DNA of 64,000 bases, from NCBI GenBank assembly GCA_028283245.1, contig JAPYNU010000072.1, positions 1 to 64,000 on the forward strand. Direction: 5' to 3'. This DNA comes from Candidatus Aldehydirespirator catecholifindens (GTDB taxonomy: Bacteria > Actinomycetota > Acidimicrobiia > Acidimicrobiales > Aldehydirespiratoraceae). The notes under the pieces are model-generated. The model had not been told where the DNA came from, made no database searches, and worked only from the letters and a program-made list of their open reading frames with translations. Of this stretch, positions 35,305-40,150 are shown in pieces. The translations under genes and the position numbers were made by a program. The stretch's first letter is position 1. Each line of letters begins with the position of its first letter.

Positions 35305-35694
35305 GTGGGTGAAACCTATGTGACTGTGACGGTCACGAACCCTGCCGACCCAGAGCAGTCATGGCAGGGCGAATTCCTTGTGGACACCGGTGCCCACGAC
35401 ACTGTGGTTCCCCGTAAACATCTCGAGGCGATCGGCGTTAAACCCGAAAGTGATCGGGTATACGAGCTTGCCGACGGTGCCCTAGTCAACTTCGATGTAG
35501 GCGGCGCAAAGCTCGGATTTCTGGGCAGGAGCACACATGTAGATGTGCTATTCGGCTCGGATCAAGCAGAGCCGCTACTTGGTGTGATCGCCCTGCAAGC
35601 CATAGGTGCCGAAGTGGATCTGCGTAACGAACAACTTGTGCTCAAGCCTGTGCTGCCGCTCCCCACCTTGCGGTTGCCCCGCCAGCGCAGCTAG
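35305..35694 (+). CDS. Retropepsin-like clan AA aspartic protease, array member 3
   Basis: This protein has 129 residues, with the catalytic FLVDTGAHDTVVPRKHLEAIG, then VYELADGALVNFDVGGA and EPLLGVIALQAIGAEVD. The GTG start has the leader AGGAAGGTTGAGACA, nearly the same as member 2. From DTGAH to the C-terminal strand it is more similar to member 2, on the far side of the defence operon, than to its neighbours 4 and 5. It has no signal peptide. It would act as a homodimer. Confidence 0.82.
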   Translation: MGETYVTVTVTNPADPEQSWQGEFLVDTGAHDTVVPRKHLEAIGVKPESDRVYELADGALVNFDVGGAKLGFLGRSTHVDVLFGSDQAEPLLGVIALQAIGAEVDLRNEQLVLKPVLPLPTLRLPRQRS

Positions 35695-35737
35695 TGGCAA
35701 TAGCACCAACCATTGCATCAAGGAAGGAACAACGACA

Positions 35738-36094
35738 ATGGGTGAAACCTATGTGACTGTGACAGTCAGCAACCCTTCAGAACCCGAACGAGCCTGGACA
35801 GGCGAGTTCTTGGCCGACACAGGGGCGACCCTCAGCGTTGTCCCGCGCAAGCGCCTCGAAGAGATCGGCATAGTCCCCACAGACGACCGGTTCGCTGAGT
35901 TGGCAGACGGCAGCGTTATCCGCCTTGAAGTAGCTGTCGCAGGTCTCGAATTTGTCGGTGAGCGCACCCTCGGGCTGGTGATTTTTGGCTCTGACGATGC
36001 CGAACCGCAGCTCGGTGAAACCGCCATGCTAGGCGTGGGAGTCAAGGTGGACACCGTCAACCACTGCCTCGAACCCGCCAAGATCCGCGCCTAG
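35738..36094 (+). CDS. Retropepsin-like clan AA aspartic protease, array member 4
   Basis: This protein has 118 residues: FLADTGATLSVVPRKRLEEIG, AELADGSVIRLEV and AEPQLGETAM. The catalytic DTG is intact. In the second motif LLG is replaced by QLG. I chose ATG 35738 because it follows AAGGAAGGAACAACGAC and because MGETYVTVTVSNP aligns with the other members; an open extension upstream overlaps member 3. It is nearly identical at both ends to member 5. Confidence 0.82.
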   Translation: MGETYVTVTVSNPSEPERAWTGEFLADTGATLSVVPRKRLEEIGIVPTDDRFAELADGSVIRLEVAVAGLEFVGERTLGLVIFGSDDAEPQLGETAMLGVGVKVDTVNHCLEPAKIRA

Positions 36095-36168
36095 CTGACA
36101 GCCGTATCGCTCGCAAACAGCGACCAAAACACAGAAATGAACCAGCACAAAACAGAAAGGACAAGATT

Positions 36169-36525
36169 ATGGGTGAAACATATGTGACTGTGACGGTCAG
36201 CAACCCTTTAGAGCCTGAGCGCTGCTGGACAGGCAAATTCCTAGCCGACACTGGGGCGACCTTCTGCATTGTCCCGCGCAATCGCCTTGAAGAGATCGGC
36301 ATAGTTCCCATATCTAGTCGGCATGTAGAACTGGCCGACGGCAGCATTACGCGCCTTGAAATGGGAATCGCAGGCATTGAATTCATTGGCGAGTACACCG
36401 CTGGCAGGGTGGCATTCGGGTCCGACGATGTCGAACCACTGCTCGGCGTGTTGACCATGCAAGAGGTGGGGGTCAAGGTGGACACTGTCAACCACTGCCT
36501 CGAACCCTCCAAAGCCCGCGCCTAG
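36169..36525 (+). CDS. Retropepsin-like clan AA aspartic protease, array member 5
   Basis: This protein has 118 residues: FLADTGATFCIVPRNRLEEIG, VELADGSITRLEM and VEPLLGVLTM, ending VDTVNHCLEPSKARA. An AGAAAGGACAAG ribosome-binding site precedes the ATG. It is the closest paralogue of member 4, and the pair shares its post-stop sequence (CTAGCTGACAGCC... then AGCGACCAAAACACA). This indicates a recent tandem duplication that included the flanks. Confidence 0.82.
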   Translation: MGETYVTVTVSNPLEPERCWTGKFLADTGATFCIVPRNRLEEIGIVPISSRHVELADGSITRLEMGIAGIEFIGEYTAGRVAFGSDDVEPLLGVLTMQEVGVKVDTVNHCLEPSKARA

Positions 36526-36615: not shown

Positions 36616-37830
36616 TCAGAACTCGGCGGCTAGAGCTTCTTCGAAGCTTGCCTGCTGTGCAATGAGCGCGCGATAACGCATCACATGGCGGGGGCGGTTG
36701 AATCCCAGCACCCCAGTAATACGCCCAGCACGGCCGTAGATCGCAGCAAAGCGGCGCTCTTGCAAAGACCCAGTCACCACTTGGATCTCATCATCAGGGC
36801 GAACCCGTCCCGCTAGTTGAATCTTGCGATCGTACTGATCGCTCCAAAACCACGGCACTGGCGCGAACGGCTCCACGCTCTCATCTAACAGCCGTCGAGC
36901 TGCGTGAGTTCCTTGAGCAGCCGCGTTATCCCAGTGCTCGACACGCATCATTTCGCCAAAAAGCTCATTGGGCCAGCGTGCAACATCACCAGCCGCTACC
37001 ACCCCGGGCGCTGCTGAGCAGGTGGCATCACACACCACGCCATCATCCAAAGTCAAACCCGAACCGTGAAGCCATTCAGTGTTGGGGATTACTCCAATGC
37101 CCACGACTACCACATCAGCATCAACACTTGAACCATCCGACAACACCACACTTTGCACACGATCGGTGCCTACCACGGCATCCACCCCCACGCCGGTTCG
37201 CAGATCCACGCCATGATCGCGATGCATTTCGGCGCATACGCTGCCCATCTCATCGCCGAGCACTCGGCTCAGCGGATTGGCAAGCGCTTCCACCATCGTC
37301 ACCTGCAAGCCGCGGCCGCGCGCTGTTGCGGCTACCTCAGCACCGATGAACCCTGCGCCCACCACAACCACCCGCTGCGGCGAAGCCTCGAAATCAGCGC
37401 GCAACGCTAAGCAGTCGTCCAATGAGCGCAGCACATGCACCCCGGCAAGGTTCTCGGTTCCAGTCAGGGTGCGACAGCGCGCCCCAGTGGCGATCACGAG
37501 ACCGTCAAAGTCAAGCGTCTCACCGTTTTCGAGAGTCAGCCGACGTGAAACCAAATCCAGCGCTGCAGCTTTTTCGCCGAGCCGGATGTCGATGCTGTCA
37601 GCAGCCAGTTCCTCGGCATCGCTCAGAGCGGTTCGCTCGGGTTCCCAGTCACCTGCCAGCACCTGCTTAGAAAGCGGCGGACGGTCATAGGGAAGATGCG
37701 GCTCTTCGCCCAGAAGCGTTATCTGGCCTTCAAAGCCAGCGCGACGCAGCGCTTCGGCGGCGTTCAATCCAGCAAGCGAAGCCCCGACAATCACCACAGA
37801 ACCAGACGACAGGTTCAGCGATTCAGTCAC
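36616..37830 (-). CDS. Ferredoxin–NAD(P)+ reductase, FAD-dependent
   Basis: This 404-residue pyridine nucleotide-disulphide oxidoreductase-like flavoprotein has an N-terminal FAD site VVIVGASLAGLNAAEALR. The NAD(P)-binding VVVVGAGFIGAEVAATARG is at about residue 150, with VAAGDVARWPNELFG, and a C-terminal reductase domain (WFWSDQYDRKIQLAGR). There are no redox-active CxxxxC cysteines, as in putidaredoxin-reductase-type enzymes, which pass electrons to a ferredoxin serving a P450 or dioxygenase. The ferredoxin gene lies immediately upstream in the same operon. No terminal oxygenase is in the window. Confidence 0.93.
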   Translation of the reverse strand: MTESLNLSSGSVVIVGASLAGLNAAEALRRAGFEGQITLLGEEPHLPYDRPPLSKQVLAGDWEPERTALSDAEELAADSIDIRLGEKAAALDLVSRRLTLENGETLDFDGLVIATGARCRTLTGTENLAGVHVLRSLDDCLALRADFEASPQRVVVVGAGFIGAEVAATARGRGLQVTMVEALANPLSRVLGDEMGSVCAEMHRDHGVDLRTGVGVDAVVGTDRVQSVVLSDGSSVDADVVVVGIGVIPNTEWLHGSGLTLDDGVVCDATCSAAPGVVAAGDVARWPNELFGEMMRVEHWDNAAAQGTHAARRLLDESVEPFAPVPWFWSDQYDRKIQLAGRVRPDDEIQVVTGSLQERRFAAIYGRAGRITGVLGFNRPRHVMRYRALIAQQASFEEALAAEF

Positions 37831-37926: not shown

Positions 37927-38121
37927 CTAATCCTCAGCAATAGAGATGGCCTGCTTAGGACAGCGCCGCACGCATTCCTGCACCCGTGCGCGGTCAGCCT
38001 CGTCAGGGGTTTCGTTGAGGATGTAAAGAAAATCGTCGTCGCGCACCTCGAAAATGTCGGGTGCGATCTCCATGCAAACGGCGTTGCTCTCACACAGATC
38101 AAAATCAACAACTATGCGCAT
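37927..38121 (-). CDS. 3Fe-4S ferredoxin
   Basis: This 64-residue single-cluster ferredoxin has the typical VDFDLCESNAVCMEIAPDIF with the C-x5-C spacing of 3Fe-4S proteins and a last cluster Cys in RRCPKQAISI. It resembles the small ferredoxins that serve actinobacterial cytochromes P450. It is the likely partner of the reductase encoded 96 bp downstream. The ATG has a GGAGTC ribosome-binding site upstream. Confidence 0.93.
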   Translation of the reverse strand: MRIVVDFDLCESNAVCMEIAPDIFEVRDDDFLYILNETPDEADRARVQECVRRCPKQAISIAED

Positions 38122-38266: not shown

Positions 38267-38641
38267 TCAGGCTAGGAACTCGGCTACGCGGTCTTTGGCT
38301 TTTAGGTCGCCGAGGGGTCGTCCGATGATGGCCCTATCGCCGCGCATTAGCACTGGACGCTGCATAAGCCGCGGGTACTGCAACAGCACCTCCACCACCG
38401 CCTCGGGGTTAGCTACGTAATCGTCAGCATTGAGCCCCAGTTTGGTGAATTGTGAGTCTTTTCTGACCAGGTTCTCAACCGGATCCTCTAAACGTTCAAC
38501 CAGGCTCTGCAGCGCTGCTCGGTCTGGACGATCCGACATGTAGAGCACCACATCAAAATCCACGCCAGCATCCGTGGCGACCGCCACAGCATTGCTTGAA
38601 GAGTTTCAATGCTTGTTGTGATAGATGGTTACTTCAGCCAT
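38267..38641 (-). CDS. ArsC-like selenoprotein candidate (in-frame UGA at the catalytic Cys)
   Basis: An ArsC/Spx-type thioredoxin-fold protein of 124 residues if TGA at 38608-38606 is read as selenocysteine (U12). The N-terminus MAEVTIYHNKH-U-NSSSN aligns without gaps with E. coli ArsC, whose catalytic Cys is residue 12. Conserved Arg positions follow in NLVRKD, MQRPVL and IGRPLG. A perfect AAGGAGG lies 8 nt before the ATG at 38641, 24 bp after the upstream gene's stop. The phase is preserved on both sides of the TGA (54 nt from ATG to the next usable GTG at 38587). A pipeline would start at that GTG and lose the active site. Whether it reduces arsenate or another thiol/selenol substrate is unknown. 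Confidence 0.85.
38574..38608 (-). promoter_or_regulatory. Candidate bacterial SECIS element
   Basis: The region after the TGA (38608-38606) can fold into GTGGC-GGTC-GCCAC (38587-38574), a 5-bp apical stem with a GGUC loop 23 nt downstream of the codon. The loop matches the GGUC of the E. coli fdhF SECIS and lies within the spacing accepted for bacterial SECIS elements. AGCA/TGCT could extend the lower stem. SelB binding is inferred. Confidence 0.6.
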
Positions 38642-38665
38642 AGGTGTCGGCCTCCTTGTTGTTGT

Positions 38666-40021
38666 TTAGTTGGCGGCATCTTGGTAGGCGGACAAGATCG
38701 GCTCTATCTCAGCGGCAGCCCACTCCTCACCTTCGGTGGCAAGAATGTCTTCGGCTTTTCCGGTCAAAGTCAAATGACCATCCCTGCTGAGCACACCCAG
38801 TACACCGGTGCGGAAACGGCCCCGAGCGTCAAACGCTTTGGCATCCAAAGAGGGGTCGGTGTATCCCGAGAACAGCATCGGGCCGCTCACCCTCACTTCG
38901 CCCTGAATACCCGCAGGGGCGGGTGCCTCGCCGCCGTCAGCGCCGACCGCCACGATTGACACCCGGCAGCCGGGCACTGGGCGACCAGCGCTATGAGCGA
39001 GTTGTTCGTCACTGTCGTGCGGTGATCCCTGCACAATCATCGGGCATTCATGCATGCCGTATCCGTGGGCCACGGGCACACCCATCTGCTCTTTCACTTG
39101 GAAGTAGAGCTTCGGCGCAATTGCGGCCCCCGACCCTGCCAGCAGCCGCAGCGCAGGCATGGCTGGACGTCCGTTTATTTTGCGTGAGCGGCGATCTTCA
39201 GCCAGAAACATCCGGTAGAACGCTGCTGAACCGCCAGCCATAGTCACGCCGTGACGAGCGTAGATCAGCATGGCATCAATCGGATCGAAGTTCTCAATGA
39301 GCAGAGTGGATGTCCCTGCTGCAAGCATCATGATGATGTAGCACGGTCCGCGAATATGGGCGTATGGAAATGCAATCGAGCCGACATCGTCGGTGCCAGC
39401 TTCAAGCGCCTGCATCATGGCGAGACCGCCAGCAAGCAGCGACGCGTCGGTGTGCTTCACGCCTTTGGGGGCTGAGCTGACACCGGAGGTGCCGAAGTTG
39501 TAGTAGAGCCAGCGCACCGCATCAGACGCACTAGCGGGCTGCTGGGGCAGAGTCGCCGGGTCGTCCTCGGGAAGGTCCTTGTAACCGTTAAGCACTGTTA
39601 CTGCGTGCTCAAAGCAGTCATCAGGCTCATCAAGGATTTCGGTGAGCATGGCACCATAGTCGAAACCGCCCCAGACACCCGGATGGATCACCAACTGCGC
39701 CTGGGTCTGGCGAATGCAGAACTCAACTTCGCTGCGTCGATAGACGTGAACGATTGGATTCTGCACGACACCGAGCCTGCTGAGCGCGAAGCTCAACACC
39801 ACGGTCTCGATGCGGGTGGGCAACATCCAGGTAACAGGCGTGTTTTCGGTCACACCCATTCGGTGAAGTCCCGCCGCCACCCGTTCTGCCTGATCCTTGA
39901 ACTCGGCGAAACTCATCACATGACCCGAGTCATCAATCAACATCTTTTCGTCGGGAGTAGTCGCCACCCTCTGGCAGAGCAGATCCCAGATTGAGGATGC
40001 TGCGTGGATCGGCTCGCTCAA
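38666..40021 (-). CDS. AMP-binding (acyl-CoA synthetase-like) protein lacking its C-terminal domain
   Basis: This is the large domain of the adenylate-forming superfamily, with 451 residues. It has the P-loop-like YYNFGTSGVSSAPKGVKHT, AGGSAAFYRMFLAE, LLAGSGAAIAP, the A5-like HGYGMHECPMIVQG and FRTGVLGVLSRDGHLTLTGKAED. It ends at AEIEPILSAYQDAAN, just past the hinge. The usual ~100-residue C-terminal domain with the catalytic Lys (A10) is therefore absent. I chose TTG 40021 because AAGAGG lies 7 nt upstream; the frame is open to TTG 40084. It is the first gene of the operon with the ArsC-like selenoprotein. The substrate is unknown. Confidence 0.82.
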   Translation of the reverse strand: MSEPIHAASSIWDLLCQRVATTPDEKMLIDDSGHVMSFAEFKDQAERVAAGLHRMGVTENTPVTWMLPTRIETVVLSFALSRLGVVQNPIVHVYRRSEVEFCIRQTQAQLVIHPGVWGGFDYGAMLTEILDEPDDCFEHAVTVLNGYKDLPEDDPATLPQQPASASDAVRWLYYNFGTSGVSSAPKGVKHTDASLLAGGLAMMQALEAGTDDVGSIAFPYAHIRGPCYIIMMLAAGTSTLLIENFDPIDAMLIYARHGVTMAGGSAAFYRMFLAEDRRSRKINGRPAMPALRLLAGSGAAIAPKLYFQVKEQMGVPVAHGYGMHECPMIVQGSPHDSDEQLAHSAGRPVPGCRVSIVAVGADGGEAPAPAGIQGEVRVSGPMLFSGYTDPSLDAKAFDARGRFRTGVLGVLSRDGHLTLTGKAEDILATEGEEWAAAEIEPILSAYQDAAN

Positions 40022-40150
40022 GTCAGACCTCTTCAGGGTATTTTTCAGGGTTTCTCTGCCTGATTGCGACCATGCCCAAGGCAAGCTTCAAGCATGTTTG
40101 AAAGGGTTCAGGCAATCTTACAAGCCTAGTTGTCATGCTCAGCACGCGCC

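What the first reader, a model, noticed from the sequence alone, without database searches (positions are those of the whole stretch)
38267..38641. Unannotatable-by-default ArsC-like selenoprotein with UGA at the catalytic Cys
Seen: AAGGAGG 8 nt before ATG 38641, then MAEVTIYHNKH, TGA and NSSSNAVAVATDAG in one uninterrupted phase. The TGA falls exactly at E. coli ArsC Cys12, and downstream ArsC Arg positions (VRKD, QRP, GRP) are kept. A hairpin with GGUC loop begins 19 nt after the TGA. Known: ArsC-like selenoproteins have been reported from marine metagenomes, and bacterial SECIS elements lie just downstream of the UGA. Inference: this gene is translated with selenocysteine, within a redox operon that also encodes a ferredoxin, its reductase and a truncated adenylate-forming enzyme.
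Basis: partly seen in the sequence, partly recalled or inferred. Interest (0 to 1): 0.9.

Follow-up and report, generated by a model that had tools for sequence, protein, structure and literature searches.

The report
ArsC-family selenoprotein gene, UGA as selenocysteine
A small redox-enzyme gene in an uncultured actinobacterium reads a UGA 'stop' codon in its active site as the rare amino acid selenocysteine; the family was already known from the ocean, but this is an unusually well-supported member that ordinary gene finders would cut in two.

Summary
On the minus strand at 38641-38267 lies a 124-codon ArsC-family gene with one in-frame TGA (38608-38606), at the position of E. coli ArsC Cys12; the three ArsC arginines are kept. 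The same genome carries selA, selB, tRNA-Sec and selD, and selD itself has an in-frame TGA. Orthologues in 38 other genomes of the same family and order keep the TGA; in the other homologues read, the codon is TGC or TGT. A hairpin with a GGUC loop, 16 nt after the TGA, is conserved to the synonymous sites (variation 0.12 of expectation, against 0.79 in the gene as a whole) and shows compensatory changes in three base pairs, some silent. Cys relatives show no such constraint. It is therefore a selenoprotein gene with a bacterial SECIS, of a known kind: the UxxS arsenate-reductase-like selenoproteins reported from the Sargasso Sea (2005) and GOS (2008). Its substrate is open: the genome yields no ACR3 or ArsB match, and the gene sits between an acyl-CoA-ligase-type gene (truncated here) and a ferredoxin with its reductase. 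New member of a known kind.

The parts
38267..38641 (-). ArsC-family selenoprotein gene, 124 codons, UGA (Sec) at codon 12, terminal stop TGA 38269-38267
38606..38608 (-). in-frame TGA read as selenocysteine; aligned with E. coli ArsC Cys12; TGC/TGT in non-TGA homologues
38572..38589 (-). bacterial SECIS hairpin: 7-bp stem CUGUGGC/GCCACGG with GGUC loop, 16 nt after the UGA
   Evidence: synonymous constraint, covariation, covariance-model hit E 4e-11 in own genome (model built partly from this sequence)
38651..38657 (-). Shine-Dalgarno AAGGAGG, 9 nt before the ATG
   Evidence: read directly
38666..40084 (-). AMP-binding (acyl-CoA ligase type) gene just upstream, without the AMP-binding_C domain here; pairing with the selenoprotein gene is conserved in many relatives
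37927..38121 (-). small single-cluster ferredoxin (Fer4_13/15/19)
   Evidence: neighbour in the genus and in one other genus of the family
36616..37830 (-). ferredoxin-NAD(P)+ reductase type flavoprotein (HcaD/AndAa-like, below curated cut-offs)

Best explanation
The gene encodes a selenoprotein of the ArsC family. SelB, bound to a hairpin just after the UGA, delivers Sec-tRNA-Sec, so that the UGA at codon 12 is read as selenocysteine instead of stop. The Sec takes the place of the nucleophilic cysteine of glutaredoxin-type arsenate reductases, in an ArsC fold with the three oxyanion-binding arginines kept. Shown by comparison: recoding of the UGA, the SECIS, the fold family and the active-site residues. 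Inferred: that the Sec attacks an oxyanion or oxidised substrate and is then reduced by a small thiol or a redoxin. Arsenate as the natural substrate is possible but unproven; a general thiol-redox or other reductase role, perhaps linked to the neighbouring ligase, ferredoxin and reductase genes, is at least as likely. The confidence given is for the selenoprotein reading, not for the substrate.
For: Own genome: selB over cut-off, selA two ORFs before it, tRNA-Sec with anticodon UCA, 68.3 bits, selD with its own in-frame TGA. TGA kept in 39 genomes of this family and order (own included); homologues without TGA that were read have Cys. TGA genomes have selB over cut-off in 38 of 39, the exception having selA and tRNA-Sec, and in 27 of 27 in a class-wide sample of 247 in which 130 have selB (Fisher p = 7e-9, genomes counted as independent). 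Lowest 7-codon window after the UGA (+6 to +12): synonymous variation 0.12 of expectation, median window 0.79; no constraint in Cys homologues (1.00 against 0.96). Stem pairs: 99% canonical in 28 GGUC-type sequences, 14 double-sided changes, 0 of 500 shuffles reach the covariation score, no slid register comes near; one covarying pair (columns 24/33) is silent in both codons (p = 4e-5, sequences counted as independent). TGA is the commonest stop in the window, 20 of 32 long ORFs, so the code is not reassigned. AlphaFold2 model pLDDT 93 matches ArsC structures (3rdw E 1.9e-9, 1jzw 1.5e-6).
Against: No protein-level evidence. The genome is a draft in 104 contigs. The hairpin's folding energy alone is not special (z = -0.46). 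Rfam gave no match at its gathering score, nor a relevant weak one. About ten relatives with TGA have a different loop (CAUU at these columns) and do not fit the same stem well. For arsenate as substrate: no ACR3 or ArsB match in this genome, and no arsenic gene next to it.
Confidence: 0.96

Rival explanations
1. A pseudogene or sequencing error: TGC or TGT mutated or misread to TGA, splitting a Cys-type ArsC gene.
For: A single-base change would give this sequence; the genome is a draft.
Against: The same TGA occurs in 38 other genomes of family and order and in Verrucomicrobiales records, and the 3' part is under protein-level and RNA-level constraint.
Confidence: 0.01
2. Two separate products: an 11-residue leader ending at the TGA and an independent 106-aa protein starting at GTG 38587.
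For: The downstream ORF exists and a gene finder would report it.
Against: The first residues (IYHN) are conserved and form the first strand of the ArsC fold; Cys homologues read straight through; the GTG lies inside the SECIS stem; the Shine-Dalgarno is at the upstream ATG.
Confidence: 0.015
3. UGA recoded as another amino acid (code change) or generally read through.
For: In-frame TGA.
Against: TGA ends 20 of 32 long ORFs in the window; the column is Cys in relatives; Sec genes and a SECIS are present.
Confidence: 0.005
4. It is a selenoprotein and its natural job is arsenate reduction for arsenic resistance (a refinement of the best explanation, not an alternative to it).
For: Catalytic position and all three arginines of E. 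coli ArsC are kept; TIGR00014 arsC E 3.8e-23.
Against: 82 bits, below the 106-bit TIGR00014 cut-off; no ACR3 or ArsB match in the genome (93% complete); neighbours are not arsenic genes. Other exporters were not searched.
Confidence: 0.35

Closest known systems
Arsenate reductase (ArsC, COG1393) UxxS selenoproteins of the Sargasso Sea and GOS (PMC1088965, PMC2398784; listed as TIGR00014 UxxS in PMC13188914)
   Same: ArsC family, Sec in place of the catalytic Cys, UxxS motif (here U-N-S-S), SECIS after the UGA; 14 sequences in 2005, 77 in 2008
   Different: Those were found in metagenome sequence; here the gene is set in genomes with the Sec machinery, with operon context, SECIS covariation and Sec/Cys exchanges on a tree. 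Their sequences were not compared directly.
Glutaredoxin-dependent arsenate reductase ArsC of E. coli plasmid R773 (PDB 1i9d, 1jzw)
   Same: Fold, position of the nucleophile (residue 12), Arg60, Arg94, Arg107
   Different: Cys instead of Sec; about 26-28% identity in the fold comparison; encoded in an ars operon (general knowledge)
ArsC-like selenoproteins of Deltaproteobacteria (PMC1794560) and the UxxC arsenate reductase-like selenoprotein NF041106 (PMC13188914)
   Same: Sec in an ArsC-family protein
   Different: NF041106 has a UxxC motif, here UxxS; NF041106 was not among the NCBIfam matches
Spx / YffB branch of the ArsC family
   Same: Same fold
   Different: Spx is a CxxC transcription regulator (general knowledge); the match to ArsC is better here

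Membership tests
Bacterial selenoprotein genes | in-frame UGA aligned with Cys of homologues | tested here: met
Bacterial selenoprotein genes | selA, selB, selC, selD in the genome | tested here: met
Bacterial selenoprotein genes | SECIS hairpin shortly after the UGA with G in the apical loop | tested here: met
   loop GGUC
Bacterial selenoprotein genes | selenium in the purified protein | not testable with these tools
   needs 75Se labelling or mass spectrometry
ArsC family (Pfam PF03960) | profile match over gathering score | tested here: met
   44.9 bits against 24
ArsC family (Pfam PF03960) | ArsC fold | tested here: met
   predicted model, pLDDT 93; 3rdw, 3f0i and E. coli ArsC are the top matches
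Arsenate reductase (glutaredoxin) TIGR00014 | score over the curated equivalog cut-off | tested here: not met
   82.2 against 106.05 bits, Sec given as Cys
Arsenate reductase (glutaredoxin) TIGR00014 | nucleophile at residue 12 and Arg60/94/107 | tested here: met
   U12, R60, R95, R108
Arsenic-resistance (ars) system | arsenite exporter ACR3 or ArsB in the genome | tested here: not met
   genome 93% complete
Arsenate reductase | arsenate reductase activity | not testable with these tools
   needs the purified Sec protein

The most novel reading that the evidence does not exclude
The ArsC-type selenoprotein of this clade is not an arsenic enzyme but a redox component tied to the co-encoded acyl-CoA-ligase-type enzyme (and, in this genus, to a ferredoxin and its reductase): a physiological role not yet described for ArsC-family selenoproteins.
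Probability: 0.3. Interest if true: 0.55.

Novelty: new member of a known kind. Interest (0 to 1): 0.4.

Why it matters
Standard annotation would call a 106-aa fragment or nothing here. The set of about 55 distinct TGA sequences gives a clean case of SECIS covariation and frozen synonymous sites, and pairs of close relatives with Sec or Cys (for example G109 and G078 of one genus, where the Cys genome shows no selA, no selB over cut-off and no tRNA-Sec over cut-off) for studying how selenocysteine is exchanged for cysteine. The conserved ligase neighbour gives a first handle on the function of a selenoprotein family whose biological function, per PMC13188914, remains largely uncharacterised.

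Tried and rejected
Rfam on the window and at low threshold around the hairpin: no relevant match. Relatives in viral contigs: none. Covariance-model search of the own genome for further selenoprotein genes: the next best hit (E 0.08) lies in a coiled-coil ORF and is a false positive. A first pair count with the structure string off by one column was wrong and was redone. Folding energy of the hairpin alone is not informative. I first counted genome G055 as lacking selB; it scores below the cut-off but has selA, tRNA-Sec and a selB-like ORF, so a Cys form can persist with the machinery, and the selB cut-off undercounts. Papers tying ArsC selenoproteins to Acidimicrobiia or to this operon: none found in the held library.

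Full report
Observation. The minus strand at 38641-38267 holds ATG, ten further codons, TGA, 112 sense codons and a final TGA, with AAGGAGG 9 nt before the ATG. Read through, it matches Pfam ArsC at E 1.4e-11; the part after the TGA alone matches at 2.8e-8. In NCBIfam it is nearest to TIGR00014 arsC (E 3.8e-23) but below that model's equivalog cut-off. Against solved structures the best sequence matches are arsenate reductases; U12, R60, R95 and R108 stand at E. coli ArsC Cys12, Arg60, Arg94 and Arg107 (residue roles from general knowledge of ArsC). The AlphaFold2 model (pLDDT 93, Cys for Sec) matches ArsC structures in Foldseek.

Machinery. The genome (2.59 Mb, 104 contigs, 93% complete) has selB over cut-off with a selA gene two ORFs upstream, a tRNA-Sec with anticodon UCA scoring 68.3 bits, and selD, whose reading frame itself contains one TGA in HGAG-U-GCK. 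TGA is also the commonest ordinary stop in the window (20 of 32 long ORFs), so the genetic code is not changed.

Conservation of the TGA. Among 61 genomes (own plus relatives), 39 have the gene with exactly one TGA at this place; two of them also have a paralogue with a TGA. Homologues without TGA that were read have TGC or TGT there. Related genes with TGA also occur in records titled Verrucomicrobiales. TGA carriers have selB over cut-off in 38 of 39 cases; the exception, G005 (84% complete), has selA and tRNA-Sec. In a class-wide draw of 247 genomes all 27 TGA carriers have selB, against 130 of 247 overall. The reverse need not hold: G055 has a Cys gene although selA, tRNA-Sec and a selB-like ORF are present. 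G109 and G078 are of one genus: the first has TGA, selA, selB and tRNA-Sec, the second has Cys, no selA, no selB over cut-off and only a sub-threshold tRNA-Sec match. On a protein tree of 88 rows (the Sec/Cys residue left blank), five changes between Sec and Cys suffice, with Cys rows nested among Sec rows; many forks are weakly supported.

SECIS. Codons +6 to +11 after the UGA read GCC GTG GCG GTC GCC ACG in nearly all 34 family members; the most frozen 7-codon window (+6 to +12) has synonymous variation 0.12 of expectation, against a median of 0.79. In Cys homologues the same codons vary freely (1.00 against 0.96; these are more distant, so the contrast is only supportive). The hairpin is C(C/U)GUGGC-GGUC-GCCACGG, columns 20-26 with 31-37 counted from the T of the TGA. 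In 24 varied sequences 92% of cells pair and three pairs have double-sided changes; in 28 GGUC-type sequences 99% pair, with 14 double-sided cells, and none of 500 shuffles reaches the covariation score, nor does any slid register. The A-U pair at columns 24/33 in four sequences is silent in both codons (p 4e-5, counting sequences as independent). About ten TGA sequences, mostly of one other family, have a CAUU-type loop and fit this stem less well; their SECIS is presumably a variant. The base before the TGA is T in 91 of 94 TGA genes and in 2 of 23 Cys genes (rows partly redundant), which I cannot explain.

Surroundings. Upstream lies an AMP-binding ligase; in many relatives across the family, and in one other family of the order, a ligase precedes the selenoprotein gene, in most of the genus ending about 10 nt before its start. 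In most of the genus the ligase is 541 aa or longer, and the one scanned has AMP-binding_C; in the window (472 aa) and the nearest relative (463 aa) that part is missing. Downstream ferredoxin and reductase genes are shared by the genus and one further genus. In several other genera none of these neighbours was found. No ACR3 or ArsB match was found in the genome.

Comparison with what is known. ArsC-family selenoproteins with a UxxS motif were described from the Sargasso Sea (PMC1088965: 14 sequences, with a predicted SECIS shown) and the Global Ocean Sampling data (PMC2398784: 77 sequences), and are listed in the 2022 and 2026 reviews (PMC9312934, PMC13188914). The gene here fits that kind in every sequence feature tested. 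The added elements are its place in assembled genomes, the SECIS covariation, the operon and the Sec/Cys exchanges. Function remains inferred: the Sec is very probably the catalytic nucleophile; the substrate may or may not be arsenate.

Verdict. New member of a known kind.

Noticed in passing
window 38666-40084 and L117:3515-4906: The AMP-forming ligase lacks its C-terminal domain in the window and in its nearest relative, while other members of the genus keep it; possibly a decaying or altered enzyme.
   Followed up: partly
L018:1483-2532: selD of the same genome has an in-frame TGA (HGAGUGCK) and is probably itself a selenoprotein.
   Followed up: partly
L070, L071; second hits in G221, G238, G259, G293: Paralogous ArsC-family genes with their own TGA; in L070/L071 a GGUC hairpin with a different stem lies 6 nt closer to the TGA.
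   Followed up: partly
window 38609 (base before the TGA) and the same base in relatives: T in 91 of 94 TGA genes against 2 of 23 Cys genes; possibly a context preference for Sec insertion.
   Followed up: no
window 35305-36525 +: Three tandem paralogous ORFs with an FxxDTGA motif; two scanned give weak aspartyl-protease (retropepsin-like) matches.
   Followed up: no
L009:6980-8368: An ORF lies between selA and selB in the same direction; by eye a metallo-beta-lactamase-type protein (not searched).
   Followed up: no
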